The notes under the pieces were generated by a model. The model was not told the origin of the DNA, ran no database searches, and was given only the letters and a program-made list of their open reading frames with translations. Below, piece after piece: positions 1 to 21,981 of a stretch of 32,446 bases of DNA. Positions within the stretch are counted from its first letter, which is position 1. Every line of letters begins with the position of its first letter. The stretch comes from a virus. The position numbers and the translations under genes were made by a program. The DNA is taken from positions 1 through 32,446 of IMG/VR virus record IMGVR_UViG_3300037189_012531. One strand, written 5' to 3'.

Positions 1-517
1 AGATAGGAGCAGTCCATCCAGCAATACGCATATGAGCAACCATTTCTTCGTTCGTGGCGAGAACTCCGTCCACGAATTCATTAACCATGTGTTCGTAGTA
101 TCCCATCCATTTCGCCATACCCCAAACATGAACGAAATCATCAGGATCAATGGACTGAGCAAGACAGCGAACATAAATGCGAGGCCTGTGATTACTATTG
201 ATTTGATTAAGAATATATGGAAGCGATTCGATTCCGGGCTGAAACATATCCTCAAAGTAGATAACATCTTCACTATTAATTTCCCCAGCTTTCATCATTT
301 TAACTAAGTTCATCATCTGACTCATGCCAAAGTATGAACGACCATGTGCATCAAGAACTTGCCCAGTTACAATAGCCTGATCATTGCTTAGTGTTTCACC
401 TGGCACCATAACATATTTGATTTTTCTACGATCAAATACTTCACGATTCCATTCTTGCAATTGAAGTGTATATCTAGCCTTGTATGGCTCTAAGCCCATA
501 TAATATAATTTACGCAT
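1..517 (-). CDS. Partial glycosyltransferase-like protein (N-terminal 172 residues)
   Basis: The start codon is the ATG at 517-515, and the frame stays open to the window edge, so only the N-terminal 172 residues are seen. It begins MRKLYYMGLEPYKARYT and overlaps the end of the upstream gene by 8 bases, which suggests translational coupling. Visible traits are a mixed alpha/beta pattern with a segment VIYFEDMFQPGIE near residue 90 and RIYVRCLAQS near residue 115, and a tail of the kind VDGVLATNEEMVAHM. This alternation of strands and helices, with late text resembling the 'it is watching/standing there' loop of GT-B enzymes, recalls phage GT4-type glycosyltransferases. The neighbour is a sugar-nucleotide-type fusion enzyme, which fits. 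Family assignment is by eye and moderate; the catalytic C-terminal half lies outside the window. Confidence 0.55.
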   Translation of the reverse strand, partial: MRKLYYMGLEPYKARYTLQLQEWNREVFDRRKIKYVMVPGETLSNDQAIVTGQVLDAHGRSYFGMSQMMNLVKMMKAGEINSEDVIYFEDMFQPGIESLPYILNQINSNHRPRIYVRCLAQSIDPDDFVHVWGMAKWMGYYEHMVNEFVDGVLATNEEMVAHMRIAGWTAPI

Positions 518-1280
518 TTTTTCTCTCTATGTCTTCCTCGTTGCACCTCTCACCATACTGAACTTCTAGTATATGGCAATGTGTGTCATAGTTGTTTTGA
601 CCTTGATGCCATACTTCTTTTTCAATGATATATGTGTCATGTTCAGCCTTGTGAACTAACATTGTATCACCGTTGTACTCAGTTGCAACATCGCATTTAC
701 CCTTTAGTATGTACCAATGCTCAGACCTATGAAAATGCCTTTGCATGGATAACTTCTTACCAGGTTCTATGACTAGCTCTTTAACCTTATAATCAAGTTT
801 TTCGTCTAATACTCTATACCATCCCCATGGGCGTATAGTCTTAGGATTCTTCCATTCTTCAAGAATCCAACTACTAGAATTTCTTTTGTTAGTGCCACCT
901 ACTCCAAACTGAAATATCAGATTAGGGTCAGAATGTTCCATTTCAGGAATATTCTTTTCGGTTCTATCTCCACCGTTTGCAAATACAATCTCTGAATCTG
1001 GGTAGAGTTGTCTAACATTTTTGATAGCTTCAATACTAGAGTTATCATCGTCATTGAATAGAATACAATGATCCACCATACTAAGGTTCTCTACTACCGA
1101 AATACGTTCTGTAAATGGCATAAAAGGTCGGCCCTTCTTACGGGCCAACCAACTATCACTATTTAAACCTACCACTAGTTTGTCCCCTAGTGATCTTGCT
1201 GACTTAAAATACTCAATGTGACCGGAGTGTATAGGATCAAATCCTCCGGTCACAAGTACTACTTTATACTGGTTTTGCAT
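510..1280 (-). CDS. Cytidylyltransferase-like / cupin fusion (sugar-nucleotide enzyme)
   Basis: Two domains are visible in 256 residues. Residues 6-120 carry the HIGH-type nucleotidyltransferase signature GGFDPIHSGHIEYF (HSGH at about 18-21), as in RfaE/HldE C-terminal domains, which couple NTP to a sugar phosphate. Residues about 150-250 form a cupin of the mannose-6-phosphate isomerase/ManC C-terminal type: RPWGWY, then KELVIEPGKKLSMQRH and HRSEHWYILKG, with His and Glu metal ligands. Both modules act on sugar (phosphates/nucleotides) in known families, but their fusion in one chain is unusual. The start at 1280 lies 17 bases inside the preceding gene, with a GGGAACTAG ribosome-site-like stretch. 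It is followed directly by a glycosyltransferase-like gene, so it probably supplies an activated sugar. Substrate unknown. Confidence 0.8.
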   Translation of the reverse strand: MQNQYKVVLVTGGFDPIHSGHIEYFKSARSLGDKLVVGLNSDSWLARKKGRPFMPFTERISVVENLSMVDHCILFNDDDNSSIEAIKNVRQLYPDSEIVFANGGDRTEKNIPEMEHSDPNLIFQFGVGGTNKRNSSSWILEEWKNPKTIRPWGWYRVLDEKLDYKVKELVIEPGKKLSMQRHFHRSEHWYILKGKCDVATEYNGDTMLVHKAEHDTYIIEKEVWHQGQNNYDTHCHILEVQYGERCNEEDIERKNA

Positions 1281-1484: not shown

Positions 1485-1943
1485 TTAAATAGCGAGTTGT
1501 TGAATAGGTTGATGTGTTTTATAAGAAATTGTGGCACCATTCTCACCATCTTCACTAACAGTGATTTCAATGTCACGCCCTGGGTAACGATCAGCGATCT
1601 TATCGTAAAGGTCATCGCTAATCATTTCGCAGCTTTTGTAGTCTAACGACAAAACATTTTGTGCGCTAGAATACATCCCTTCAAGCCATCGCTTGAATTG
1701 GATAAATTCGATATCTCGGTCGTTGTGAAAGACTTGGATAGCCACATTAAAATGAAAAATATGGCGATGAGGGAAGCCCAAAAACGAAACGTCATAATTA
1801 TCTCCTGTTTTAAGTGCTGGATCTTCGGCAGCCGCCGGATACTTGTGGATACCTTCTTTTTGAAAGGTTACCCAAACCATTCGCCTTGCTTTATTGGCAA
1901 TGCGATCTCTTTTTAGTTTTAGTTCAACTTCATGACTACTCAT
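1485..1943 (-). CDS. QueD / 6-pyruvoyl-tetrahydropterin-synthase-like protein
   Basis: A 152-residue protein whose layout follows the T-fold QueD/PTPS family. The segment FPHRHIFHFNVAIQV resembles the family's HGHxYxVxVxV zinc-ligand strand. IEFIQFKRWLEGMY resembles the DFxxLK helix that follows, and CEMISDDLYDKI then EITVSEDGENGATISY resembles the C-terminal T-A/S-E-N helix plus final strand. QueD makes 6-carboxy-tetrahydropterin, an early intermediate on the route to 7-deazaguanines. However, the classical catalytic Cys and the first His ligand are not obvious at the N-terminus, so the protein may be a diverged or non-catalytic T-fold. The nearby DpdA-like gene makes a deazaguanine role attractive. 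The assignment is by pattern only. Confidence 0.5.
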   Translation of the reverse strand: MSSHEVELKLKRDRIANKARRMVWVTFQKEGIHKYPAAAEDPALKTGDNYDVSFLGFPHRHIFHFNVAIQVFHNDRDIEFIQFKRWLEGMYSSAQNVLSLDYKSCEMISDDLYDKIADRYPGRDIEITVSEDGENGATISYKTHQPIQQLAI

Positions 1944-1952
1944 TGTTAGCTC

Positions 1953-2792
1953 TCACTCAAAAAAATGTTGATCTTCTAGAAAGGGTAACATAACTTCGTT
2001 AACCCATAATTTATGTCCTAATCCATTCGGATGCGGATTTCCATATGCTACATATAGCTCAGGTCTGGGGCCTAAATATTCATACATACCTTGCATAGAT
2101 ATTACAGTAGACTGATCAAGGTCATCGTACAGATACTTAACTGCTTGATGATCCTTGAGTGCTTTAAAATCGTCTATTACGTTATCCATAAAAAATTGAT
2201 GATATAGTTTGATTCCCTTCGACTTACAGAGATATTGTAGCATAAGAATATTCTCTAGACTAGTGTTAATGGGTCCCGGGGATACTATTGCATTTGCCGT
2301 CATGAAAAAATCCTTCATGAACGGCAAACCATCTTTAACATGGACTGATGTTATATACCATCCACCATTCGTATTATAGGTAATGGTATTGTTTAGGGTA
2401 GCAGCAGACTGTATTTTATTTGGGTATGATAATTCATTTTTCAAGTCAGCAAATTGCAGGTGCCATCCTTGTTGAGATTGTTTCCAATTCTCTACCACAT
2501 CATTAATCATATCTGGATTATCGATATAAAATGACCGGCGATCATTTGATGACCACATTACAATAACGGCAATCTCTTCGGGTTTATACCCTGTATGCAA
2601 AGCCTCATATATAGCATGAGATGCTTTCTTTTGGATAAGCTCTTGACCCTGACTACTTAGTCCTCTATGATCAAACTTTACATTAGGATCTATATTAGTT
2701 TTAATATAGTTTTCTAAATGATTAGGCCAAGTGTATGCTGTCATAGCCTCACTAAAACTACACCCAGAAGTTATTACCTTTCTGAGGTTCAT
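1953..2792 (-). CDS. SGNH/GDSL-type hydrolase-like protein
   Basis: A 279-residue protein with the block order of phage SGNH hydrolases. An N-terminal GCSFSEAMTAYTWP supplies the nucleophile-type Ser near residue 12. VMWSSNDRR about one third of the way in is the G/S-x-N-D oxyanion block, and NPHPNGLGHKLW near the C-terminus provides the D/N-x-x-H catalytic block. Members hydrolyse esters on sugars or lipids, or act as O-acetyl-transferases/esterases. No signal peptide is present, so it probably acts in the cytoplasm or on virions. The ATG overlaps the stop of the upstream gene (ATGA). Its place among glycosyltransferase and sugar-nucleotide genes suggests processing of a glycan; the substrate is not evident. 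Confidence 0.65.
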   Translation of the reverse strand: MNLRKVITSGCSFSEAMTAYTWPNHLENYIKTNIDPNVKFDHRGLSSQGQELIQKKASHAIYEALHTGYKPEEIAVIVMWSSNDRRSFYIDNPDMINDVVENWKQSQQGWHLQFADLKNELSYPNKIQSAATLNNTITYNTNGGWYITSVHVKDGLPFMKDFFMTANAIVSPGPINTSLENILMLQYLCKSKGIKLYHQFFMDNVIDDFKALKDHQAVKYLYDDLDQSTVISMQGMYEYLGPRPELYVAYGNPHPNGLGHKLWVNEVMLPFLEDQHFFE

Positions 2793-3001
2793 CGATCATC
2801 ATCCAAATGCACACGCTCATGGTCTTCTTCCCATTGAAGGCGTATTAATCGTCTAATTTCATTTAGATACTCTGTTTTCTTCTCTCTCAAGTTTTCAATT
2901 TTATTTTTATCAGGATTGTCCTCCTTCTCCATTTGAAATACTTGATTATCTAGTTGAAGATACGAATCTTCTAGTGCTTTAATCTTAGTAGTATATGACA
3001 T
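2789..3001 (-). CDS. Small charged coiled-coil protein, unknown
   Basis: 70 residues, almost wholly helical and highly charged, with heptad-like spacing of Leu/Ile (KIKALEDSYLQLDNQVFQME, then KIENLREKKTEYLNEIRRL), so a coiled coil or helical hairpin is likely. It ends with an acidic DDDR. It begins just after the DpdA-like stop (TAAAATG) and ends in an ATGA overlap with the SGNH gene, so it is an internal operon member. No catalytic motif is seen. It may be a partner or regulator of a neighbour, but that is inference. Confidence 0.65.
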   Translation of the reverse strand: MSYTTKIKALEDSYLQLDNQVFQMEKEDNPDKNKIENLREKKTEYLNEIRRLIRLQWEEDHERVHLDDDR

Positions 3002-3002
3002 T

Positions 3003-4559
3003 TTATTCTCCTATCAATGCTTCAATAATACTGTCATCACCCTCTTCATATTCGGTGATATCTTCTACAGGTTCTGAATCGGTAGCTGCTTCGAATAATT
3101 GATCAAACATAGTCAGTGCATTGACAGTTTTCTTTCCACTAAAGCCTTGACTACCAGAACGCATCTGCATCCAGAATCTATCGTACTTATCAATTAAGTC
3201 TAAACTTTTTTGTCTATCCTTTAATGAAAAAATCTCATCTACTAATTCACTGAAGCGAATGCGCTCAAAGGTGTCGTTCATCACCATCTTAGGGATAACA
3301 CCCTGTTCATAATAACGATTGGCTTCTTGTACGGCATGAATGTGCTGATACACATTATGTGCTTGCAACAATGTATAGCTTAGTGTATCCCAGCTTGTCT
3401 TTGTCTCTTTACCATGAGCACCAATAAATCCTTGACCACGATAGCAAAGATCACGAACCATCATACGGTCAGTGATAGGACTATTAGCAAATAATTTGTG
3501 TATGCCGTCAGCTAGTACCGCATCTCTGAACTTGCGACTGTCGGTAGCATAGTCTTTGTTCTCCGCAGTCTTTTCCATCGAATAAGACCACTTTTTATTG
3601 TGTTCAATGTTTGTGTTGAAGTAAGCCAAACCCTTAGCCGCAGAGTAGAAAGGGCTAGCGCAATCGAACGTAATTTGTAATTTCGGATTGTGGTATTTAC
3701 GAACGGCTTTTTGTATGTCAGTGAATAAGACTGCGTATTCCAAGATGCTCGTGCCCAAGCAGTGAATGAGGTCATGTTTTCCTTCTTCCAATAATCCATC
3801 ATGGATGATATTAACGATTCTCTTTAATGTAAGGTGAATATCAATTTTAGTTTGACCACCGAACGCCCAACCATTAAAGTGATTGTCAGGATATACCTTG
3901 GAATCACAATACTTCTTCATTTCCTGGTACCAGTTCTCACTATCAGTATGAGTAAGACCTTGCATCACGTTTAAAAACTTACACTTACCAGTACGGTTGT
4001 TGATAAAGTATTCGTTATTAATATGCGTGGCTTTAATTGCATCTCCTAGATTGGCGATCTTATGTTGAGCAAATGCTTTAGTGTTTCTGTAAGATTCGCT
4101 AGGAACATCTAGACACATACCATAATCCATGTACGTATCCATCCAAGTCAATACTTCTTTACGTTTAGCTAGTGCTTTAGGGCAGTTAGGATCTTTCCAG
4201 TCAGCAGGCCATTGACCCTTTAGAATCTGAAATCCACCGCTATCACCTAACATGAATGTACCGTTCTCGCGCTTACGGATGATGCTTTCTGCAGGGTCAT
4301 TCTTAGTAGGATCTAAGTTAGCATGTCCTGCACTGTACAATCCCCACTTGTAAGTGTAGAGACCTTCCTTGCTATTAAGAAAATTCAAGCATTCAACATC
4401 ACCGTTGAACCCTACTGGTATGCGAGACTTTTCAAAATATTCTTCACCCTCACGCTGCTTGCCTAGTCCGGTAATGAAGAAGCTAGACACTGCTGGTAAG
4501 AACAGTGCCCAGTCTGGCTTTTGATTAGCTGATAAATTAACTGGTTCCAACTTGATCAT
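3003..4559 (-). CDS. dpdA: DpdA-like tRNA-guanine-transglycosylase-family protein
   Basis: A 518-residue protein that keeps several TGT-barrel signatures in order. GDSGGFQ is at 105-111 (TGT has D-x-G-G-F-Q). MCLDVPSES is near 148-155 (TGT MxLDxC) and VMQG near 198-201. WAFGGQTK is near 231-238 (TGT LGGLSVGE region), HCLGT is at 266-270, and FDCASP is at 298-303 (nucleophile Asp, here D299, as in TGT DCVxPT). The CxCxxC zinc site of canonical tRNA-TGT is not seen, and the chain is longer than bacterial Tgt; both features fit the DpdA group, which exchanges guanine in DNA for 7-deazaguanine derivatives. The start overlaps the clamp stop (ATGA), so it is expressed with the replication genes. 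The modification product and whether DNA or RNA is the substrate are not shown by sequence. Confidence 0.75.
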   Translation of the reverse strand: MIKLEPVNLSANQKPDWALFLPAVSSFFITGLGKQREGEEYFEKSRIPVGFNGDVECLNFLNSKEGLYTYKWGLYSAGHANLDPTKNDPAESIIRKRENGTFMLGDSGGFQILKGQWPADWKDPNCPKALAKRKEVLTWMDTYMDYGMCLDVPSESYRNTKAFAQHKIANLGDAIKATHINNEYFINNRTGKCKFLNVMQGLTHTDSENWYQEMKKYCDSKVYPDNHFNGWAFGGQTKIDIHLTLKRIVNIIHDGLLEEGKHDLIHCLGTSILEYAVLFTDIQKAVRKYHNPKLQITFDCASPFYSAAKGLAYFNTNIEHNKKWSYSMEKTAENKDYATDSRKFRDAVLADGIHKLFANSPITDRMMVRDLCYRGQGFIGAHGKETKTSWDTLSYTLLQAHNVYQHIHAVQEANRYYEQGVIPKMVMNDTFERIRFSELVDEIFSLKDRQKSLDLIDKYDRFWMQMRSGSQGFSGKKTVNALTMFDQLFEAATDSEPVEDITEYEEGDDSIIEALIGE

Positions 4560-5287
4560 TTTGATTGAGCAGGCAATAGATAGCGATATGTAGCATATGG
4601 GCTATTAACTGTAATCTCAGTAGCACCTTGATCTGCAATCTTGATAGTCTTTTCACCAGGAAGATCCATGATAGCCAAGAATACCTTTACGGGCCACTTC
4701 CATGCTTGCGTTAGCTTACCAGTAATCCCTGCTTGGAAAACAAAATTACCGTTGTGGGTAGAGGGGTCACCGAAATTAATCTTAAGATCAGTTCCTGAAG
4801 TGCTGATAGTAAAATGTTCTTCTTCACTGTTTGCACTTGCTTGTTTCTTAAGACGAAGGATACCTGCGACAGTAGGTTCAAACGTCACATTCCAGTTCGC
4901 ACCCTTAAAGACAAAGTTGCGTACTTTTTCTTCAACAATAGACTTGGGCATCAAGCGATAATCATTGATGAAGTCACCAGTCTTAGTCTCAAAGTGAATA
5001 TTAGTAGGAACATCTTCATTATCCTTCTTAGTACGATTAACATTGATTTTAGCAGTGTCATCATACTCATCAAAGCTAACGATTGTTTTAAGCTTCGCAA
5101 GATTAGGCATACCAAAGATGCCTACGAAATCGGGAAGCACAGTATTGAATGTGCCATTTACAACAACGCTCTTGTTTTCAGCGATTGCTGAAATTTGTGT
5201 TTCTTTATTGGTACCGACCACCTTAATAAGGTCTACGCATCCCAATCCATGCGTATGTTGAATAAGGTCAAGTAAATTATCTTTCAT
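4556..5287 (-). CDS. 45: DNA polymerase sliding clamp (T4 gp45-like)
   Basis: A 243-residue protein near the length of T4 gp45 (228 residues), placed directly downstream of the gp43-like polymerase. The chain alternates strand-rich segments typical of clamp domains, for example KSVVVNGTFNTVLPDFVGIFG near residue 40 and a C-terminal TEITVNSPYATYRYLLPA. The central FVFKGANWNVTFEPTVAGILRL looks like an interdomain clamp repeat. The role inferred is a trimeric ring that tethers polymerase to DNA and, in T4, also activates late transcription. It has its own host-type promoter in the gap after the polymerase gene and a clear AAAGGAAAAA ribosome site. The call rests on position and overall pattern more than on a signature motif. 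Confidence 0.75.
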   Translation of the reverse strand: MKDNLLDLIQHTHGLGCVDLIKVVGTNKETQISAIAENKSVVVNGTFNTVLPDFVGIFGMPNLAKLKTIVSFDEYDDTAKINVNRTKKDNEDVPTNIHFETKTGDFINDYRLMPKSIVEEKVRNFVFKGANWNVTFEPTVAGILRLKKQASANSEEEHFTISTSGTDLKINFGDPSTHNGNFVFQAGITGKLTQAWKWPVKVFLAIMDLPGEKTIKIADQGATEITVNSPYATYRYLLPAQSK

Positions 5288-5366: not shown

Positions 5367-8072
5367 TTAACCAAATGAGAACAAATCGTCAAATGTGCTA
5401 TTAGTCATAGTATTACTTCGCAAGTCCCAATTAAGAACTCCTAGCAAGTTTTCAACCTTTTCATCTACTAGTGTGCGTTCCATTGCATTATCATCGAATG
5501 GTAGTTCAATGAACCATTGAGGCAGTCTTAGTTCATCTGTGGGATATGCGATACTAGTAAAGCCTAATGGATTATCCCTAAGTTTACATACAATGACCTT
5601 CATCCCATCAACGATCTTCATAGAATAGTTGTCTGAATTTACCCTACGCAGATAGTTATAGTTGATAGCTGCCATTGCATGACCCACACCACACTTACCT
5701 GTCTTTTCCCAAGTCTCAGTGTGTCTAGTTAGGTTGTTCACACTCTTAGGTGATCCCTTTGTCCAAGAATCTTGTGCGGCTAACACTCGCTTGAAATCCT
5801 TGATAGTTTCAATGACTTCTTCTCTGTTCTTACCTTCTTGCAATACCATCTTTAATACTTGCATCAAGAACTCTTGAACATACTTAGGAGTGTCTGCACG
5901 TTTCAAGTCAAGTCCCATAGCCTTGATATCACCTAAGTTACCATCTTTATCCTTTCGCTTGCCTTCTTTATCATAGATATTGATTGCATAACGTTTCTTT
6001 GTGATAAAAATGCTACGATCACCAATCAGTTCTCTACCTGCTTTAATAATCTCACCGTTCTTACGCGGTGCGTGAAATGCACGTTCCATGAACGCCGGGA
6101 AAGTAGCATTAGCCTGCTCTGCAATACCGTCATACAACCCTATGCACACGTCCTTATTCCATTCTAAATCGCTACTGTCTATTTGTGACTTAAGAATAGG
6201 ATATGCGCTAAAGTAACAACTGTCAGTATCGCCATATACGATTGCAGGACCTTCGTGATTATAGTCACCGGTGACAGTTTCATTGATCGTACTCATCATG
6301 TGTCGCACAATCTGTCGGCCCGACAATGTAACTGATTGACCAATACGCTTGTCATAGAAACGGCAGTGTTCATTAAGCAATGCACCATATGCACTATTAA
6401 GCAAAATCTTACGTACAAGCTGTCGCTTGTCATAGTAATCGTACATGTCAGTCCCGTATGCTTCTTTTGCTTGCTTTTGAATTGATTTACGTTCTGTATA
6501 CCAACGTGTGAGCAATCCTGGAATCACACCTTCTTGGTCGCTTCTAAATATAGTACCATTTGCACTTATGATATATGGATTATGATTATCGAAAATCAAT
6601 TTCCATACCTCAGCGGCAGACATTTCTTCGCTCCTGCCATCAGCATAATCAAGCGTAAGCATGGTGCCACGTTCTTGATTCATGATAGCAGTATATTCTA
6701 ATGCACCAAACAAACCTTCCCACAAGATGCTGCCAGTGACCTCGTCATCACCTTCCTTGTAACGCTTCTTTTCAGAGGCTAATCTTAGCCCCTTTTCTCT
6801 CATGTAGTTGTTTGTAATAGTTTGTCGGACTTGGGCAACGATTGTTTCCGGTGCCATGTTAAGAGCGCGGATCGCTGACGGGTAGAGACTGTTGATATCG
6901 ACTGCTCCCACCCATTCGTGGATGCCCCTTTTGGGCGTAGCAACATAGGCACCTGCCGCTTGTTGTTCATCATTGTGTGTATCCTTTCGTTTTTTATCTG
7001 GAACTACCAAACCTCTTTCATGAGCCTCATTCATGATTGCCATTTCAATCATTGCAACAGACCCCATGACCGTGGGCAACAGCACTGTATTTTCATGAGC
7101 CAGTGCGTTTGCCAAATCTAAAAACTTAAGCTTATTGTGAATCTTAACCAATAGCATTGTATCCTGACGATTGTATTCAATGAACTTTCTAAAGTCCTTG
7201 TTATACAACTGATCCAGAGTACCTTCGTATTGAGTCTTGTTCTCACCTACTTCCATCTCACCAATGAAGTCTAGTTTGTATGAGTGACGGGATTCATAGT
7301 TATACTTCTTGTATAATTGAAGGTAGTCCATATGAACACGCCCTACTAGATCGTAAGTAACTTCTTCTTTACCAAAGCGTTCATATGTACGCTGTTTAGG
7401 AAGCTGACCTAGCAGACAAAATTTACGTGTGTCATCCTTACTCATTACTCTAGTGACACGATTAACCATATATGGTATATCATATCCCTCAGAGTTCCAT
7501 CCTGTCAAAATATCCGCATCATCGATAAGTTGAAAAAATGTCTCAAACATCTCAGTTTCACTACGAAACAACATTGTATTTGGCATCTCTCTGACAAGAT
7601 CCCATGCTGTCTCATCGGTCATCCCCTTAGGTGGGATACAGAGAGTTATAAGTTGATCCATCCAATCCAAATACATACTAATCGCAGTCACTGGGTTGAA
7701 TGGATCACTAGTAGGGCTAAAGCCTTTATCCGGATCAAAGTCAACCTCAATATCAAAGAAGCATGTATGCAGCTTCGGTGGTTCAACCTTCAGATAGTTT
7801 TCTGAAAGGCAACGGAATACTACGTTGATATCACTCTCAAACAGTTTTTTGTTTGCATGGATTCGTCGTTCCTTTTCAAATTCAGCACGTTTTCTAGAGC
7901 TAAACTTGCTTACAGGATCACCATACAGGCTACGATACTTACCTTTACTATCACTATAGTATAGTGTATAGTTCGCAGGATATTCCTGATAGGTTCTCTT
8001 GCCTTCAGGATTCCTCTCTACTACAAAAATGCGATCGGTATCACGATCATGGATAGCATCAATATAACTCAT
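5367..8072 (-). CDS. 43: Family B DNA polymerase (T4 gp43-like)
   Basis: 901 residues, about the length of T4 gp43. The N-terminal 3'-5' exonuclease is intact: FFDIEVDFDP (ExoI, D107/E109), GWNSEGYDIPYM (ExoII) and YNRQDTMLL (ExoIII). The palm motifs are DINSLYPSAIR (motif A), KILLNSAYGAL (motif B) and YGDTDSCYFS (motif C, both Asp present); KKRYAINIYD is the later KKRY motif. It therefore looks like an active replicative, proofreading polymerase. It starts immediately after the stop of the glycosyltransferase-like gene with no clear ribosome site (TAGATG), implying translational coupling. It is presumably transcribed from the promoter upstream of the dsbA-like gene. Confidence 0.97.
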   Translation of the reverse strand: MSYIDAIHDRDTDRIFVVERNPEGKRTYQEYPANYTLYYSDSKGKYRSLYGDPVSKFSSRKRAEFEKERRIHANKKLFESDINVVFRCLSENYLKVEPPKLHTCFFDIEVDFDPDKGFSPTSDPFNPVTAISMYLDWMDQLITLCIPPKGMTDETAWDLVREMPNTMLFRSETEMFETFFQLIDDADILTGWNSEGYDIPYMVNRVTRVMSKDDTRKFCLLGQLPKQRTYERFGKEEVTYDLVGRVHMDYLQLYKKYNYESRHSYKLDFIGEMEVGENKTQYEGTLDQLYNKDFRKFIEYNRQDTMLLVKIHNKLKFLDLANALAHENTVLLPTVMGSVAMIEMAIMNEAHERGLVVPDKKRKDTHNDEQQAAGAYVATPKRGIHEWVGAVDINSLYPSAIRALNMAPETIVAQVRQTITNNYMREKGLRLASEKKRYKEGDDEVTGSILWEGLFGALEYTAIMNQERGTMLTLDYADGRSEEMSAAEVWKLIFDNHNPYIISANGTIFRSDQEGVIPGLLTRWYTERKSIQKQAKEAYGTDMYDYYDKRQLVRKILLNSAYGALLNEHCRFYDKRIGQSVTLSGRQIVRHMMSTINETVTGDYNHEGPAIVYGDTDSCYFSAYPILKSQIDSSDLEWNKDVCIGLYDGIAEQANATFPAFMERAFHAPRKNGEIIKAGRELIGDRSIFITKKRYAINIYDKEGKRKDKDGNLGDIKAMGLDLKRADTPKYVQEFLMQVLKMVLQEGKNREEVIETIKDFKRVLAAQDSWTKGSPKSVNNLTRHTETWEKTGKCGVGHAMAAINYNYLRRVNSDNYSMKIVDGMKVIVCKLRDNPLGFTSIAYPTDELRLPQWFIELPFDDNAMERTLVDEKVENLLGVLNWDLRSNTMTNSTFDDLFSFG

Positions 8073-9203
8073 CTAGTGTAACCAATTTAATTTTTTTAAG
8101 TTTTTTTGAATCTTGTCATATAATGAGTCATACGACTTTGCAAAAAATACATTTCTGTTATAATCTAAAATATGTTTATCCCGTAAATATAAATCGTGTA
8201 CTTCAGTCACTGAAAGTGTCGCTACTTTCCTGATACTATTAAAATAAGCATTTAATCTATCATCAAAGTTTATCACATTATCATATGAATAGTCAATCCA
8301 ATCAGGGAACTTGAATCCATAATATTTTTTTAAGTTACTAATAGTAAAAGGACTAGAAAATATTAAGGGGAAATTTCCTTTTATCAAAGGATCGAAATAT
8401 TTTTCTGACGGGGAAAAGAAGGTATCAAAATCTGTCGGTGTATCACAATGACTTTCTATACACACAGATACATAAGAATTATTATAATAATAGTTTGCTA
8501 TAGGAACCCAAGGAATATGCTTAATGTGATCAGGTAGAACCTGATTAAAGTAACCATTTGCACGTAGATATGTTCCATTGACTGCAAAAGGATTACCATA
8601 GTAATAAGTTGTCTCACTAAGAGTAGTCTTTAAAAAACTGTCAAGTTTTATCTTGATATCATTGTGAAAGTATTGTCTGTCATACCTAATCCTATTAGGT
8701 ATTAAGAACAGTCTAGTGTTAGAAGTGTGGCTCTTGCGTATTTCTGCTAAACTAAATGCTTCCTTTTTAACACCCTTTGACCAAAAATGAGTTTTTAAGC
8801 TATCCGTGTAGTCGGTGTAAAATAATTTGTGCCGATTAAACATTATATCATAAAAAATATACTGCAAATCGTTGCCCCCCGCGTCGGTACTTATGAAAAT
8901 AGTTTTTTTATGCTTATTGGAAATTTTTCCTATAGTATCTTTGCTGATGGCAACTGAAGATTCTAATAGCATTACTACTAAAATCTGATTTTCGTCCAAT
9001 AACTCAGAAAAATCATTAATACCATTGACACCGTGAACAAATTCATTGGGGTGTACAAAAACTATATCAGCATCCTGAAGATTATTTACAAAAACCCACT
9101 TGTCTGCATCCAATAAAAAATGAGACTTAAAATAAGTTTTTACCCTACCATAGAATTGAAATTCTATTGAGTGATCAGTATTGGGAGGGGCATATAACTT
9201 CAT
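8073..9203 (-). CDS. Glycosyltransferase-like protein (GT10-type C-terminal motif)
   Basis: A 376-residue protein. The C-terminal half has the stretch FSPSEKYFDPLIKGNFPLIF followed by ISNLKKYYGFKFPDWIDYSYD and a later DDRLNAYF. This resembles the 'TEKxxxxIxxxxPFI...LxxLGFxTF' block of fucosyltransferase-like (GT10-related) phage proteins, where the E and K contact nucleotide-sugar. The N-terminal half is alpha/beta with a predicted Rossmann-like pattern (DADIVFVHPNEFVHG near residue 45). It is sandwiched between an FkbM methyltransferase and the DNA polymerase and has an AAAGAG ribosome site. It probably moves a sugar onto a phage glycan or modified base. A more distant version of the same block occurs in the protein coded at 10935-12110. 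Confidence 0.55.
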   Translation of the reverse strand: MKLYAPPNTDHSIEFQFYGRVKTYFKSHFLLDADKWVFVNNLQDADIVFVHPNEFVHGVNGINDFSELLDENQILVVMLLESSVAISKDTIGKISNKHKKTIFISTDAGGNDLQYIFYDIMFNRHKLFYTDYTDSLKTHFWSKGVKKEAFSLAEIRKSHTSNTRLFLIPNRIRYDRQYFHNDIKIKLDSFLKTTLSETTYYYGNPFAVNGTYLRANGYFNQVLPDHIKHIPWVPIANYYYNNSYVSVCIESHCDTPTDFDTFFSPSEKYFDPLIKGNFPLIFSSPFTISNLKKYYGFKFPDWIDYSYDNVINFDDRLNAYFNSIRKVATLSVTEVHDLYLRDKHILDYNRNVFFAKSYDSLYDKIQKNLKKLNWLH

Positions 9204-9204
9204 G

Positions 9205-9987
9205 TCACTCTTTTAGTAGGTAAAAGTCATCCCATTGGGAAATATTTGCCAAAACTCTTTCGTATCCTTTTGACACCATTAGGTTGTAAATCTTTTGTCG
9301 ATTGACTTCTTTGGAGTTGTGTTCAATAGAAAAAAATTTTACCTTATATTGGTTAAAGTCAAATCCAGTCAGTATGTCAAACTCACTACCTTCCGTATCC
9401 ATAGATATGAAGTCAATATTTTTAGGCGCATTATATTTTGCAAGAAGGTCTAGCAAAGATATACTATCAACCTCATAGATTTCTTTAGTGCCACCCCTGA
9501 ATAATTCAATGTCACTATTGTAGTCCATGTAAATCTCGGCAGTAGACGCATCAGGTCTGATATTACCTTCGTTGAACATAACCTTTTCGTTAGACCTAGG
9601 CCAAACGCAATTAAAGTCTATGTTACATGATCTGTTGTTTGGTAGCTTATCGTGCCAATGCCTAGCAGGTTCAGCTAATATACCTGACCAACCAAATTCT
9701 TTTTCTAGCAGATATGTGTTACTGATATCATACCCATCAGTTGCACCAAACTCTACAAAGTAACCATCATGCTTCCAGCCTAAGTACATCTGAACAACCA
9801 AATCCTGATATACTTGACCGTGTGCTTTGTAAAAGTATTCTGCTAGTTTCTCTCTATGATTTACTGACTCGGGGTATGATTCAATAAAAATCTTGAAAAG
9901 AACAGCCACGTTGTCAGGTCTACTCATATTGAGTGGGTTGTAGGTATTTACCTCTGCCCAGTAGTCATCAATATGTCTAGCTGTCAT
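9205..9987 (-). CDS. FkbM-family methyltransferase
   Basis: A 260-residue protein with a clear FkbM SAM-dependent O-methyltransferase core. FVEFGATDGYDISNTYLLEKE (about residues 75-95) has the family's FVEIGAxDG...SNTxxLE pattern, then GWSGILAEP follows. IDFISMDTEGSEFDIL near residues 195-210 is the D-x-E-G-x-E block. Family members methylate sugar hydroxyls in polysaccharides and antibiotics. The ATG overlaps the stop of the dsbA-like gene (ATGA), so it is the second gene of that operon, followed by a glycosyltransferase-like gene. A methylated sugar on a virion glycan or on modified DNA is plausible; the acceptor is unknown. Confidence 0.85.
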   Translation of the reverse strand: MTARHIDDYWAEVNTYNPLNMSRPDNVAVLFKIFIESYPESVNHREKLAEYFYKAHGQVYQDLVVQMYLGWKHDGYFVEFGATDGYDISNTYLLEKEFGWSGILAEPARHWHDKLPNNRSCNIDFNCVWPRSNEKVMFNEGNIRPDASTAEIYMDYNSDIELFRGGTKEIYEVDSISLLDLLAKYNAPKNIDFISMDTEGSEFDILTGFDFNQYKVKFFSIEHNSKEVNRQKIYNLMVSKGYERVLANISQWDDFYLLKE

Positions 9988-10272: not shown

Positions 10273-10301
10273 AGTATATATTGTTTAAGTCAGCAAGTCA
10301 A
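10273..10301 (-). promoter_or_regulatory. Sigma-70-type promoter for the dsbA-FkbM-GT-polymerase operon
   Basis: TTGACT (10301-10296), a 17-base spacer and TATACT (10278-10273) on the minus strand. The predicted leader of about 16 nt includes the TAGGAG ribosome site of the dsbA-like gene. The -35 overlaps the 3' end of the tilS-like gene. Confidence 0.8.
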
Positions 10302-10903
10302 CGATTTTTTTCTTCTAGTTGTCCGAGCAAGATTTTTTTAACCACCGTGTGCAAACCTGGGTTAACTTTCAATGCATGCGGCATCATTTCATGCCTGATG
10401 TAGTTTCGGACATAGCAAGTGTCATCATTACTGGTATCATGGTACCAATCTACGTTCTTGCGTAGACACCAATCTACAAATTCGCTTTTACGTGTAGTAA
10501 GAAAAGGCCGGATAACATTCCCTCTATGAAACGGAATAACTTTGGGAGTACCATGCAAGCAACCCCAAAGATATGTTTCGACACAATCATCTAGGTGATG
10601 ACACGTGACGACAGGTCCTAGTTCGCTTAGGAAGTCATATCTTTCTCTTCGCCAGTATTCCTCCATAGATTCATCTTTGCCCCTCTCGCTTCGGCATGTG
10701 CCAAAGATGACCGGTAACCTACGTTCAGTGCAAAATTTGGCTACAAATTCCATAGCCCGTTCACCGTTCTCTGTCTTATGATGGAAGTATGCACACGTTA
10801 CATCGTGTTTTTTACTAAGAAAGTCTACGACGGCTACACTATCGACACCACCACTAAATGCAATAGTAATTTGTTTGGGTAGAGGAAACAATAATTTTAG
10901 CAT
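10298..10903 (-). CDS. tilS: TilS-like PP-loop tRNA(Ile)-lysidine synthetase, short form
   Basis: 201 residues covering only the catalytic N-domain of TilS (bacterial enzymes are usually over 300). SGGVDS at 17-22 is the PP-loop ATP-binding motif. CHHLDDCVETYLW is the TilS HHxDDxxET block, and DTSNDDTCYVRNYIRHEMMP matches the conserved D-x-SN....YxRNxIRxxxxP stretch. TilS converts the wobble C of the tRNA-Ile CAU anticodon to lysidine so that it reads AUA. The C-terminal tRNA-binding domains are missing, so a different target or a partner is possible. It has its own promoter, whose predicted start falls on the ATG. Confidence 0.8.
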   Translation of the reverse strand: MLKLLFPLPKQITIAFSGGVDSVAVVDFLSKKHDVTCAYFHHKTENGERAMEFVAKFCTERRLPVIFGTCRSERGKDESMEEYWRRERYDFLSELGPVVTCHHLDDCVETYLWGCLHGTPKVIPFHRGNVIRPFLTTRKSEFVDWCLRKNVDWYHDTSNDDTCYVRNYIRHEMMPHALKVNPGLHTVVKKILLGQLEEKNR

Positions 10904-16331: not shown

Positions 16332-17017
16332 GTACTCTTCCCCCAACCCATGAAGAAAGGATCACTGATAACAGGAGTACCATCACTACCCAGCATAAAG
16401 TTACCTTGATGTAGGTCTAATTTGTAACCATTTTTCTTTGCTACCTTTTTCAACATGACAACTGTATTCCACAACTTTTTTAGTCCTTTTTCACCTACAT
16501 GCATTATGACCTGTTGCATGGTTTCTTGCCTGGTGATACGGCGAACTTGCTGCCATACTGGTAGTTTATGGGAAACAGGAGTAGTAGCAGTAGACCAAAA
16601 TTTATCGAACGTGCTATTTCTTTCTATATCATCTGCCATGTCAGCCAATACCTCATTCCAATTTTTTACACTTCGACTATTAAACTCAAATAATCTTTCC
16701 ATACGTATCTGTAAGTAGGGTTTACCTCCATACATAAATGGTTCATAATCCAGGATCTCGGGTAAAAACTCATTTCCCGGGTCTGCTTTAGAAAGATCAT
16801 AAAATGTCTTGAAACTTTTTTGTGCGTTAGTAAGTTCGCCGGCTCCACCGCTATTACCACGACTTGTACCGAATATTTTTAGTATTAGACCAGATCCAGG
16901 TTCTAGGAATACAACCTGATCGGCACCTTTACCTAATTTTTTATAGCCTTTGCGTAGTAGATGAGAAATTACTCCCTGTCCAACATAGGCTTCGGATATA
17001 AAGTCAGTGGATTTCAT
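16328..17017 (-). CDS. Capsid-tag-bearing kinase-like protein
   Basis: 229 residues beginning MKSTDFISE-A, with Glu 9. The rest is a compact kinase-like fold: GYKKLGKGADQVVFLE (glycine loop 24-39), LILKIFG (Lys 47), YLQIRMERL (hinge region), LDLHQGNFML (catalytic Asp 201 and Asn 206) and VISDPFF (Asp 219 in the DFG position). It shares both ends of the fold with the larger kinase-like protein at 13984-15117 and is probably its paralogue without the N-terminal domain. It overlaps Dps by TAATG on one side and the ParB-like gene by ATGA on the other. As in T4, injected enzymes often modify host targets at once, so host protein or nucleotide phosphorylation is a reasonable guess. Confidence 0.65.
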   Translation of the reverse strand: MKSTDFISEAYVGQGVISHLLRKGYKKLGKGADQVVFLEPGSGLILKIFGTSRGNSGGAGELTNAQKSFKTFYDLSKADPGNEFLPEILDYEPFMYGGKPYLQIRMERLFEFNSRSVKNWNEVLADMADDIERNSTFDKFWSTATTPVSHKLPVWQQVRRITRQETMQQVIMHVGEKGLKKLWNTVVMLKKVAKKNGYKLDLHQGNFMLGSDGTPVISDPFFMGWGKST

Positions 17018-17457
17018 TACTCGCGTTCTACTTTTAATATTGAACGAATAAACCAGGCTTTCTTACCATATAAGTCTTGTAGCTCAGCCATATAGTTAGC
17101 AATGCCTTGTTGTCTTTCTGCTGTTGCTTCATCAAACATAGCGATAACTAGTTCAGACATTTTTTCGCAATCTTGCAATGATTCAGCAAACATTAATTGA
17201 GCGCGTGGAATTTTTACTTGATCTTCTATTATAGTTAATTGCCCATAACGTTGCAAACTACCTGGAGTATAATGACCTAAGATTCTGATATACTCTGCGA
17301 TAGGATCAATCGTCCCACTCACATCACTGTATAATGTATCATAGAATGCATGGTATTGCGGGAAGTTACTACCTTCAACATTCCAGTGAAAGTTTTGACT
17401 TTTGATAGCAAATGACTGAGTACTTGCTAATAGTATTTTTAAGTTATCTGCTAACAT
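17017..17457 (-). CDS. dps: Dps-family ferritin-like protein
   Basis: 146 residues with the Dps pattern. NFHWNVEGSNFPQYHAFYDTLY (22-43) contains the family's HW and H-x3-D ferroxidase residues (H24, H36, D40). TIDPIAEYIRILGHYTPGSL (49-68) contains D51 and E55 of the D-x3-E pair, followed by the typical LG-x-x-x-x-GSL turn. Dps forms twelve-subunit shells that bind and mineralise iron with peroxide and protect or compact DNA. It lies inside the operon of tag-bearing proteins and has AAGGAAAG as its ribosome site. It does not itself carry the nine-residue tag. It might guard packaged or freshly injected DNA from oxidants, or sequester iron in the host. Confidence 0.85.
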   Translation of the reverse strand: MLADNLKILLASTQSFAIKSQNFHWNVEGSNFPQYHAFYDTLYSDVSGTIDPIAEYIRILGHYTPGSLQRYGQLTIIEDQVKIPRAQLMFAESLQDCEKMSELVIAMFDEATAERQQGIANYMAELQDLYGKKAWFIRSILKVERE

Positions 17458-20373: not shown

Positions 20374-21981
20374 TTAACTCCTCAATAAAGGTGGAACACC
20401 GGACCTCTTGACATTAAAACCAAACGCTTTAGTATTCTTTTTTATTGCGTCTGGTTTAACATCTACTGTAAGAGCAGTCTTGAATCGCGGATCATTCTTT
20501 TCTTTTTCGCTCGGGATATATCCGGAGCTTTCACTTATGGGTATGGCCAAATCTCTAGATAATACACGTATTCTGTCAGGTGGTATCGGTGTTGTTATTG
20601 CAATTTCAAAATCAGCCCCATCCGTAACATTGCCATCTAATCCTTCAGTATCAATCTCTAATAATGCAAGAGGTTCATCTTCTTCAAATTCATCACCTAG
20701 CCAATTCATTACTGCATCTTCCATACTGGTTTTATCAGGGAAGCAATAAATTGCAGACTTTTCATCTACCATCTTACTGGATCGGTTCCCCTTTTGAGGT
20801 ATCAATCCTTTAGATAAGATACTATCTAAATTTTCACTAGGAGTAACATGATATATCTTTTTAGGCAACTCATCCTGATCCTCATTAACATTGTATGTAG
20901 GATCAACTTTTTGACGTTTCATCCCTTTTGGTTGATTAGGATCAACAGGGTCTATGTCAGTAGTAGTAAGTCCCAACTTCTTCAATGCGTCAATGTACTT
21001 GTGTTCCTCTTCTTCACGACCAAATGCCATAATGGTGCTCGGTGGTCCTTTACCGAATATCTTAGGGTCTGCTTTGTCTAGATTACTGATATACTGACCT
21101 AGTTTATACCAATCATACACATCACTAACATCTACTCTCACTGTACCTTTAGGCATAGTAGGCTTAAACTCTGGCCCGGGTGGAGGACCATTTGGATAAT
21201 AATCTTCAAACTCTTTTGATAGCTTTTCCTTCAGATTATCTTTCTGTAGCTTAACAGGATTTTTATACATTGTCTCTATAGTCAATGATTCGCTATGTAG
21301 CTTATCTCTAAGGGCATACAGTTTGGTAATATACCCTTGACTACGTAATGCTTTATATGCTAGATTTTCAGGACCAAACTCTCCAAATTTATCCAAGCCT
21401 GCTTGTCTGTACTGTCTAATTTTCTTTATGATATCATTTATTTTTTCTAAATTTTTAAACTTTAGTGCATGTTGAACTAGGGTTAATAACTTTTCATATT
21501 TTACTTTAGTAGCAGTATTATCAAAATTAGCTCTACGTTTGGTAGGTAATCTAAGCCACTTGTCTTGTAATATACTGTATTCTCCTAGACTTACTGCAGG
21601 TTCATTTATATCCTGCACATATAGTTCTACTGGCACATCATGAACTTTGATATCGTGACTATCATTATAGATAGTCTTTTTAGCATTGAAAAGTTCTTTA
21701 TATACTTCATCGTCAGACAAGTCTTTCATGTCGATAAGTATGTGTAAATCTAAATCGCTATGAGGAGTATAACTATATGCTGCATTGCTACCAGATATAG
21801 TAAGGTCTTTCACATCAAGACCACTCACACCTAATTCTTCTAAGAAATCTTCAGCAATTATTTTTAACTGCTTTTTAACTTCAGGGCGAAGGTGATTCCC
21901 GTGCCAAATTTTTGGATTCAGCGCATTGTGAAACTTAACAGCATCGCTTAAGCGAAAAGATTCTAAAGTTTTTATGTCCAT
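20374..21981 (-). CDS. Pol-beta-type nucleotidyltransferase fused to ADP-ribosyltransferase-like domain
   Basis: 535 residues in three parts. Residues 60-125 carry an NTase signature, GSNAAYSYTPHSDLDLHILI (D76 and D78) with a third acidic residue in VELYVQD (E119), so catalysis is plausible. Residues about 280-347 hold a module VRVDVSDVYDWYKLGQYISN ending in LGLTTTDIDPVDP. Residues 375-475 contain KIYHVTPSENLDSILSKGLI, then SAIYCFPD and DGADFEIAITTPIPPDRI, which follows the H-x-T...NL-x-x-IL-x-x-G-L pattern of DarT/KptA-like ADP-ribosyltransferase folds. The protein lacks the N-terminal tag of its neighbours. A GATAAATA box is 4 bases before the ATG. A nucleotide-transferring effector or toxin is likely; the target is unknown. 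Confidence 0.6.
   Translation of the reverse strand: MDIKTLESFRLSDAVKFHNALNPKIWHGNHLRPEVKKQLKIIAEDFLEELGVSGLDVKDLTISGSNAAYSYTPHSDLDLHILIDMKDLSDDEVYKELFNAKKTIYNDSHDIKVHDVPVELYVQDINEPAVSLGEYSILQDKWLRLPTKRRANFDNTATKVKYEKLLTLVQHALKFKNLEKINDIIKKIRQYRQAGLDKFGEFGPENLAYKALRSQGYITKLYALRDKLHSESLTIETMYKNPVKLQKDNLKEKLSKEFEDYYPNGPPPGPEFKPTMPKGTVRVDVSDVYDWYKLGQYISNLDKADPKIFGKGPPSTIMAFGREEEEHKYIDALKKLGLTTTDIDPVDPNQPKGMKRQKVDPTYNVNEDQDELPKKIYHVTPSENLDSILSKGLIPQKGNRSSKMVDEKSAIYCFPDKTSMEDAVMNWLGDEFEEDEPLALLEIDTEGLDGNVTDGADFEIAITTPIPPDRIRVLSRDLAIPISESSGYIPSEKEKNDPRFKTALTVDVKPDAIKKNTKAFGFNVKRSGVPPLLRS

What the first reader, a model, noticed from the sequence alone, without database searches (positions are those of the whole stretch)
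1485..4559. DpdA-like base-exchange enzyme with a QueD-like gene in the replication operon
The 518-residue protein keeps the TGT motifs (GDSGGFQ, FDCASP, HCLGT) but lacks the zinc site of tRNA-TGT, as in DpdA enzymes that insert 7-deazaguanines into DNA. A QueD/T-fold-like gene is three genes downstream. QueC, QueE and FolE are not in this window, so the phage may depend on host or distant genes. Modified guanines would shield it from restriction.
Basis: partly seen in the sequence, partly recalled or inferred. Interest (0 to 1): 0.72.

Follow-up and report, generated by a model that had tools for sequence, protein, structure and literature searches.

The report
Phage 7-deazaguanine DNA cassette with glycosyltransferase
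This virus carries the start of a widespread gene set that probably swaps guanines in its DNA for a 7-deazaguanine base made by an unusual route without the enzyme QueC, and a partner sugar-transferase that is almost always present suggests the base may also be sugar-coated to hide the DNA from bacterial defences.

Summary
The 518-aa protein (3003-4559, -) has the fold of tRNA-guanine transglycosylase (VIA-align Z 20.2) and keeps D106 and D299. It lacks the zinc site, as do all 53 aligned relatives. It is a DpdA, distantly related to the DpdA2 of phage nt-1.

The QueD-like gene (1485-1943, -) has the QueD fold and three candidate zinc histidines. It is not the pathway QueD: relatives carry a separate canonical QueD as well. 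It replaces QueC. Where the genome was searched, DpdA phages have either this T-fold gene or a full QueC, not both.

FolE, QueD and QueE are missing here only because the contig is cut. Relatives carry them about 4-7 kb beyond DpdA.

The new part is a GT4-like glycosyltransferase, cut off at the window edge (2-517, -). T-fold and glycosyltransferase both occur in 87 of 88 DpdA-seeded relatives with 7 kb of downstream sequence. The exception is of the QueC type.

Best reading: a QueC-less 7-deazaguanine DNA-modification cassette. The T-fold enzyme turns 7-carboxy-7-deazaguanine into the base that DpdA inserts (likely 7-deazaguanine, "DpdL", recalled from an unread paper). The glycosyltransferase probably decorates that base. 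Insertion is well supported; the T-fold chemistry and the glycosylation are inferences from gene association.

The parts
3003..4559 (-). DpdA-type guanine transglycosylase, 518 aa (DpdA2-related, no zinc site)
   Evidence: TGT fold Z 20.2, Foldseek top rows all TGT, invariant D106/D299 and no CxCxxC in 53 relatives, profile match to the nt-1 DpdA2 family prob 93%, E 3e-7
1485..1943 (-). QueD-like T-fold protein, 152 aa (phrog_17812); predicted 7-carboxy-7-deazaguanine-processing enzyme that replaces QueC (DpdL candidate)
   Evidence: PHROG E 1.6e-36; predicted fold matches E. coli QueD; invariant H33, H59, H61, H73, R76, E79, E131; mutually exclusive with QueC
2..517 (-). N-terminal 172 aa of a GT4-like glycosyltransferase, cut by the window edge
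   Evidence: HMM E 4.5e-75 and phmmer E ~1e-104 to L014's 392-aa protein; full-length relatives match PF00534 just above its cut-off; open ORF
510..1280 (-). RfaE-II-like nucleotidyltransferase fused to a mannose-6-phosphate isomerase-type cupin (possible sugar-donor synthesis)
   Evidence: PF01467 E 2.6e-14, PF01050 E 4.2e-25; sits between T-fold and GT in many close relatives
1953..2792 (-). Protein of unknown function with a GCSFS motif, between DpdA and T-fold in the window; present in only some relatives
   Evidence: weak DUF6071 match; homologues in 51 of 335 loci
4556..5287 (-). Sliding-clamp-like protein, overlaps the DpdA start by 4 bp
   Evidence: homologue annotated sliding clamp in Phosso but 'structural protein' in PA5oct; phrog_12062; found in 310 loci
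5367..8072 (-). Family-B DNA polymerase, upstream in the same operon
   Evidence: PF00136/PF03104, phrog_262 E 4e-197

Best explanation
The window holds the front part of a phage operon that modifies phage DNA after replication with a 7-deazaguanine-type base, by a route without QueC. (1) FolE, QueD and QueE, encoded just beyond the contig end, make 7-carboxy-7-deazaguanine (CDG) from GTP [shown as genes in relatives; chemistry known for these families]. (2) The T-fold protein at 1485-1943 takes CDG instead of QueC. Most likely it decarboxylates it to 7-deazaguanine, using a zinc site (H33, H59, H61) and invariant H73, R76 and E131 [inferred]. (3) DpdA at 3003-4559 exchanges guanines in DNA for that base through D299 (nucleophile) and D106 [fold and residues shown; DNA as substrate inferred from the family and the operon]. 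(4) The glycosyltransferase that starts at 517 adds a sugar to the inserted base, with donor chemistry supplied by neighbours such as the 510-1280 nucleotidyltransferase/cupin [inferred from near-obligate linkage only]. The result would shield the DNA from restriction and other DNA-directed defences.
For: TGT fold with intact catalytic aspartates and no zinc site. T-fold matches QueD in fold, but relatives encode a separate canonical QueD. FolE in 6 of 7 and QueD in 5 of 7 long relatives; the two shortfalls are contigs cut near the cassette. QueE-like genes lie downstream of DpdA. QueC/T-fold exclusion: 87 of 88 DpdA-seeded relatives with 7 kb downstream have T-fold and GT and no QueC; the exception L256 has QueC and neither. 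Complete genomes: PA5oct, Phosso, ACP17, X1 and BUCT-ZZ01 have T-fold+GT and no full QueC; 2.275.O, GR7B, nt-1, Moby and pf16 have QueC and neither. Syntenic swap: Moby FolE..QueC-DpdA2-QueE versus X1 FolE..GT-DpdA2-Tfold-QueE. All 207 T-fold/GT pairs share a strand, median gap 261 bp. In Phosso the pair stays together about 172 kb from DpdA, next to FolE and QueE. In 50,697 phage records the GT family occurs in DpdA+T-fold phages plus four remote hits. The module recurs with other DpdA lineages in Magnetospirillum, Methylobacterium and Aurantimonas contigs. T-fold and GT distances track DpdA only weakly (0.19 and 0.31, against 0.82 for clamp/polymerase), so they seem to be exchanged and yet always kept.
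Against: No chemistry was measured. CDG decarboxylation and the name DpdL come from memory of Cui et al. 2023 (NAR 51:9214), which is not held. 7-deazaguanine has no hydroxyl or other usual glycosyl acceptor, so step 4 needs C-glycosylation, a glycosyl ester of retained CDG, or an unseen step. Some T-fold phages lack both GT and a recognised DpdA (RHph_I1_18, Bakedbeans, Ahp1, phiST, D479). D479 also has a partial QueC-like hit. The low distance correlation of the short T-fold may be saturation.
Confidence: 0.55

Rival explanations
1. Same cassette, but the final base is plain 7-deazaguanine (dDG), or CDG itself. The glycosyltransferase acts on something else, such as another base, a virion protein or the host surface.
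For: T-fold without GT exists in phiST, RHph_I1_18, Bakedbeans, Ahp1 and D479, so T-fold function does not need GT. 7-deazaguanine lacks a usual acceptor group. Bases dDG and dCDG were reported in phages by Cui et al. 2023 (memory; text not held).
Against: GT is close to T-fold (median gap 261 bp) and on the same strand in all 207 pairs, and 255 of 258 GT hits lie within 6 kb of T-fold. It is missing in QueC-type DpdA phages. ACP17, X1 and BUCT-ZZ01 lack any thymidylate-synthase-type hydroxymethylase that could supply hydroxymethylpyrimidine acceptors.
Confidence: 0.3
2. One reading: the T-fold gene is QueD, and the phage relies on host QueC/QueE/FolE to make preQ0 or archaeosine for DpdA.
For: QueD-like fold; hosts often have the queuosine pathway (PMC6884629).
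Against: Relatives carry their own FolE, QueD and QueE. A canonical QueD sits beside the T-fold protein in the same genomes, and QueC is consistently absent.
Confidence: 0.06
3. The 518-aa enzyme modifies tRNA (host or phage), not DNA.
For: It has the TGT fold and TGTs act on tRNA.
Against: No zinc site in any of 53 relatives; it lies in the polymerase operon; it is related to phage DpdA2, whose nt-1 member was defined beside a preQ0 gene cluster (PMC6884629).
Confidence: 0.05

Closest known systems
DpdA2 of Vibrio phage nt-1 (YP_008125322; Hutinet et al. 2019, PMC6884629)
   Same: TGT-related phage enzyme in a 7-deazaguanine operon; profile-profile match prob 93%, E 3e-7 over the catalytic core
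   Different: Not found by HMM search of the nt-1 genome with the window family; nt-1 has QueC and no T-fold or GT
DpdA of Enterobacteria phage 9g (dG+ in DNA, experimentally shown; PMC6884629)
   Same: Same predicted reaction type, and also encoded in a polymerase/clamp neighbourhood
   Different: No sequence match; 9g uses Gat-QueC and makes archaeosine
QueD / 6-pyruvoyltetrahydropterin synthase (T-fold)
   Same: Fold (E. coli QueD 4ntk among top matches); three candidate zinc histidines and the late glutamate by motif
   Different: No cysteine at the QueD catalytic position by motif; relatives also encode a true QueD
DpdL, predicted CDG decarboxylase (Cui et al. 2023 NAR 51:9214; from memory, text not held)
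   Same: QueC-less FolE/QueD/QueE context, QueD-like fold
   Different: Sequence identity to DpdL could not be checked; no GT association known to me
T4 alpha/beta-glucosyltransferases acting on 5-hydroxymethylcytosine
   Same: Would be an analogous post-replicative DNA sugar hypermodification
   Different: Different base, a GT4/PF00534-like family, and no hydroxymethylpyrimidine route of the thymidylate-synthase type in ACP17, X1 or BUCT-ZZ01

Membership tests
TGT superfamily | TGT (beta/alpha)8 fold | tested here: met
   VIA-align Z 20.2, 305 residues aligned; Foldseek top 13 are TGTs
TGT superfamily | Catalytic aspartates (DSGGFQ Asp and FDxxxP Asp) | tested here: met
   D106 and D299 in 53 of 53 relatives; assigned by motif, not by structure superposition
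tRNA-TGT | CxCxxC...H zinc site | tested here: not met
   No CxCxxC in 53 relatives; Pfam TGT PF01702 does not match
DpdA (DNA 7-deazaguanine transglycosylase) | Encoded with 7-deazaguanine biosynthesis genes in a phage genome | tested here: met
   FolE, QueD and QueE downstream in relatives
DpdA (DNA 7-deazaguanine transglycosylase) | Inserts a 7-deazaguanine into DNA | not testable with these tools
   Needs LC-MS
DpdA2 subfamily (nt-1) | Sequence homology to nt-1 DpdA2 | tested here: inconclusive
   Profile-profile prob 93%, E 3e-7, but the HMM search of the nt-1 genome finds nothing: related, probably a separate subfamily
DpdA3 / DpdA4 (Cui 2023) | Sequence homology to named members | not testable with these tools
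   Paper and its sequences not held
QueD | T-fold | tested here: met
   pLDDT 93.5 model, top PDB matches QueD/PTPS
QueD | Zinc-binding histidines | tested here: inconclusive
   H33, H59, H61 invariant in 22 relatives; assigned by motif, metal not shown
QueD | Catalytic Cys before HxH and Asp-His pair | tested here: not met
   No conserved Cys before H59 in 22 relatives; C105 lies elsewhere and is Val in some. Motif-level comparison with relatives' QueD; QueD residues from memory
QueD | Sole 6-carboxytetrahydropterin synthase of the pathway | tested here: not met
   Separate PF01242 QueD in relatives' genomes
DpdL (CDG decarboxylase) | Occurs with FolE/QueD/QueE and without QueC | tested here: met
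DpdL (CDG decarboxylase) | Sequence identity to published DpdL; decarboxylase activity | not testable with these tools
   Paper not held; no assay
GT4-type glycosyltransferase | PF00534 match and conserved R/K/E donor-site residues | tested here: met
   L014 relative 26.5 bits against cut-off 26.4, X1 45.5 bits; invariant R207, K212, E299. The window copy itself holds only the N-terminal domain

The most novel reading that the evidence does not exclude
The cassette makes a glycosylated 7-deazaguanine in DNA, a base class I do not know to be described. A T-fold enzyme replacing QueC and a dedicated glycosyltransferase act with DpdA. It is found in hundreds of uncultured large phages, in the PA5oct/MIJ3/Paride Pseudomonas jumbo phages, and in some bacterial genome contigs (Magnetospirillum, Methylobacterium, Aurantimonas).
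Probability: 0.42. Interest if true: 0.82.

Novelty: new variant of a known kind. Interest (0 to 1): 0.62.

Why it matters
Known phage 7-deazaguanine systems mostly go through QueC. Here a QueC-less branch, with a T-fold enzyme and a glycosyltransferase as near-obligate partners, turns out to be common in large uncultured phages. If the glycosyltransferase acts on the deazaguanine, this would be the guanine counterpart of T4's glucosylated cytosine. Cultured phages with the cassette exist (PA5oct, MIJ3, Paride, ACP17, X1, Phosso), so one LC-MS run on existing stocks would settle it. It also gives a function hypothesis for a 'hypothetical protein' set conserved in Pseudomonas jumbo phages, some of them studied for therapy.

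Tried and rejected
Family libraries and PDB sequence search for the 518-aa protein: nothing usable. Single-sequence hhalign against 9g DpdA and ACP17 QueD was too weak to use. The 201-aa PP-loop protein at 10298-10903 looked QueC-like (phrog_1550) but is TilS-like (TIGR02432 over cut-off); its relatives in L009 and L051 gave 25-bit false QueC hits. A9 against the PDB: only a bacterial glucosyltransferase, AmGGT (8xsg, E 1e-3), which says nothing on the acceptor. TET/JBP search: the controls did not ring, so no conclusion. BUCT-ZZ01 UTS52035 was first taken as DpdA2 and corrected to UTS52034. PA5oct-group papers give no base-modification data; a 2026 review lists MIJ3 among jumbo phages with unusual features including hypermodified DNA, but the MIJ3 paper does not mention modification. 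Cui et al. 2023 not held. T-fold profile against PDB sequences gave only bacterioferritin noise.
Full report
What was checked. The window is a 32,446-base virus record that holds no more than the window itself, probably a fragment. Pfam, PHROGs, NCBIfam, PADLOC and the PDB sequences do not recognise it. From a 53-sequence alignment AlphaFold2 gave a confident model (mean pLDDT 89.7; only the C-terminal tail 472-518 is poor). Foldseek's 13 best PDB rows are all tRNA-guanine transglycosylases. VIA-align gives Z 20.2 to the Thermotoga TGT, 305 residues, rmsd 4.3. D106 (DSGGFQ) and D299 (FDCASP), the positions of TGT's two catalytic aspartates by motif, are invariant in all 53; no relative has CxCxxC. 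The enzyme core is therefore present and the tRNA-TGT zinc site is absent in the whole family.

Which DpdA. The family profile does not hit the nt-1 or 9g genomes by HMM. It matches the nt-1 DpdA2 family in profile-profile comparison (prob 93%, E 3e-7). I call it DpdA2-related, probably its own subfamily. Whether it is the published DpdA3 or DpdA4 could not be tested because that paper is not held.

The QueD-like gene. The 152-aa protein at 1485-1943 (-) belongs to phrog_17812. Its model (pLDDT 93.5) matches E. coli QueD and PTPS structures. H33, H59, H61, H73, R76, E79 and E131 are invariant in 22 relatives; the only conserved cysteine (C105) lies elsewhere and is Val in some. Relatives also encode a separate canonical PTPS/QueD, so this protein does something else.

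Biosynthesis genes. The window is cut about 3 kb past DpdA. Longer relatives show FolE (6 of 7) and QueD (5 of 7) downstream, with QueE beside them. One of the two lacking something (L067) keeps only about 4 kb beyond DpdA, and the other (L077) ends just after FolE.

QueC is replaced. No full-length QueC is found in T-fold-bearing relatives, including contigs up to 353 kb (a few partial PP-loop hits, and a partial 33-bit hit in Vibrio phage D479). DpdA relatives that have QueC (2.275.O, L256, GR7B) have no T-fold. The swap is visible between syntenic phages: Stenotrophomonas phage Moby has FolE..QueC-DpdA2-QueE, Xanthomonas phage X1 has FolE..GT-DpdA2-Tfold-QueE. Cellulophaga phiST (T-fold, no QueC) and phi38:2 (QueC annotated, no T-fold found by tblastn) show the same split.

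The glycosyltransferase. PA5oct, X1, ACP17 and Phosso carry a glycosyltransferase next to T-fold or DpdA. Its first 172 residues are in the window at 2-517 (-), cut by the edge (HMM E 4.5e-75). Of DpdA-seeded unique loci with at least 7 kb downstream, 87 of 88 have T-fold and GT; the other is QueC-type L256. Of all 129 such loci, 124 have both; that total includes loci found with T-fold as query, so the 88 are the fairer count. The pair is on one strand in all 207 cases, median gap 261 bp. In Phosso it sits about 172 kb away from DpdA yet beside FolE and QueE. In 50,697 phage records, tblastn with three GT seeds finds the family in DpdA+T-fold phages plus four remote hits, in phages that also gave a remote DpdA hit. 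Distances of GT and T-fold correlate only weakly with DpdA (0.31, 0.19) whereas clamp and polymerase correlate at 0.82, which suggests exchange with retention; saturation of the short T-fold is a caveat. Frequent companions are a phosphoribosyltransferase (74 of 125 loci), an epimerase (45), an RfaE-like nucleotidyltransferase (33), a cupin (28), an IMPDH-like protein (25) and an unknown 175-aa protein (90). Sugar-nucleotide genes fit a dedicated donor; the phosphoribosyltransferase could salvage the guanine that DpdA releases (inference).

Beyond phages. T-fold occurs in 25 bacterial or archaeal contigs. Many are probably phage contigs in MAGs, but Magnetospirillum, Methylobacterium and Aurantimonas contigs carry GT, T-fold and a divergent DpdA; whether these are prophages was not tested.

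Mechanism. FolE-QueD-QueE make CDG. The T-fold protein processes CDG, most likely by decarboxylation to 7-deazaguanine. DpdA swaps it into DNA. GT probably adds a sugar. The first and third steps rest on well-understood families; the second on fold, residues and exclusion of QueC; the fourth on linkage alone. A chemical objection stands: 7-deazaguanine has no usual acceptor, so a C-glycoside, a glycosyl ester of retained CDG, or another step is needed. ACP17, X1 and BUCT-ZZ01 lack thymidylate-synthase-type hydroxymethylases, which argues against hydroxymethylpyrimidines as acceptor there; a TET route was not excluded.

Novelty. DpdA systems are known (PMC6884629). A QueD-like CDG decarboxylase named DpdL and the bases dDG/dCDG are, from memory, in Cui et al. 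2023, which I could not read. In the searched library I found no report of a glycosyltransferase in such cassettes. I rate it a new variant of a known kind.

Noticed in passing
window 10298-10903 (-): 201-aa PP-loop ATPase that looks QueC-like in PHROGs but matches the TilS N-domain model over its cut-off; it produces false QueC hits in relatives L009 and L051.
   Followed up: partly
window 9205-9987 (-) and 8073-9203 (-): FkbM-type methyltransferase (PF05050 E 2e-12) next to a 376-aa protein without a Pfam match that reads like a glycosyltransferase; variable in relatives, possibly glycan modification.
   Followed up: partly
L333:8762-9283 and 194 other loci hits: Unknown 175-aa family, no Pfam or PDB match, directly after DpdA in 90 of 125 relatives and also in ACP17; conserved LKIDD and NPGVW motifs. 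A candidate further member of the cassette.
   Followed up: partly
L349, L350, L353, L358 (Magnetospirillum), L351 (Methylobacterium), L352 (Aurantimonas): Bacterial contigs carry GT, T-fold and a divergent DpdA together; could be prophages or a defence island.
   Followed up: partly
L359, L360, L364 (Methanosarcinales, Paenibacillus polymyxa, Bradyrhizobium): FolE-QueD-QueE with a T-fold relative but no GT or DpdA detected; may be a 7-deazapurine natural-product cluster.
   Followed up: no
window 17017-17457 (-): Dps/ferritin-like protein (PF00210 E 5e-15) encoded by the phage.
   Followed up: no
window 20374-21981 (-): 535-aa protein with a nucleotidyltransferase-like motif (GSNAAYSYTPHSDLDLHI) and a later stretch that reads like an ADP-ribosyltransferase-type domain; no Pfam support.
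   Followed up: no
L090 (BUCT-ZZ01): Second glycosyltransferase-like gene (UTS52035) upstream of DpdA2, so two such enzymes flank the T-fold; a second GT of about 445 aa also follows QueE in some relatives (L071, L024).
   Followed up: partly
MT366760 GR7B, L084:7686-9302: Related TGT-domain protein that keeps a CxCxxC zinc motif, with two QueC genes and no T-fold; an intermediate between TGT and the window family.
   Followed up: partly
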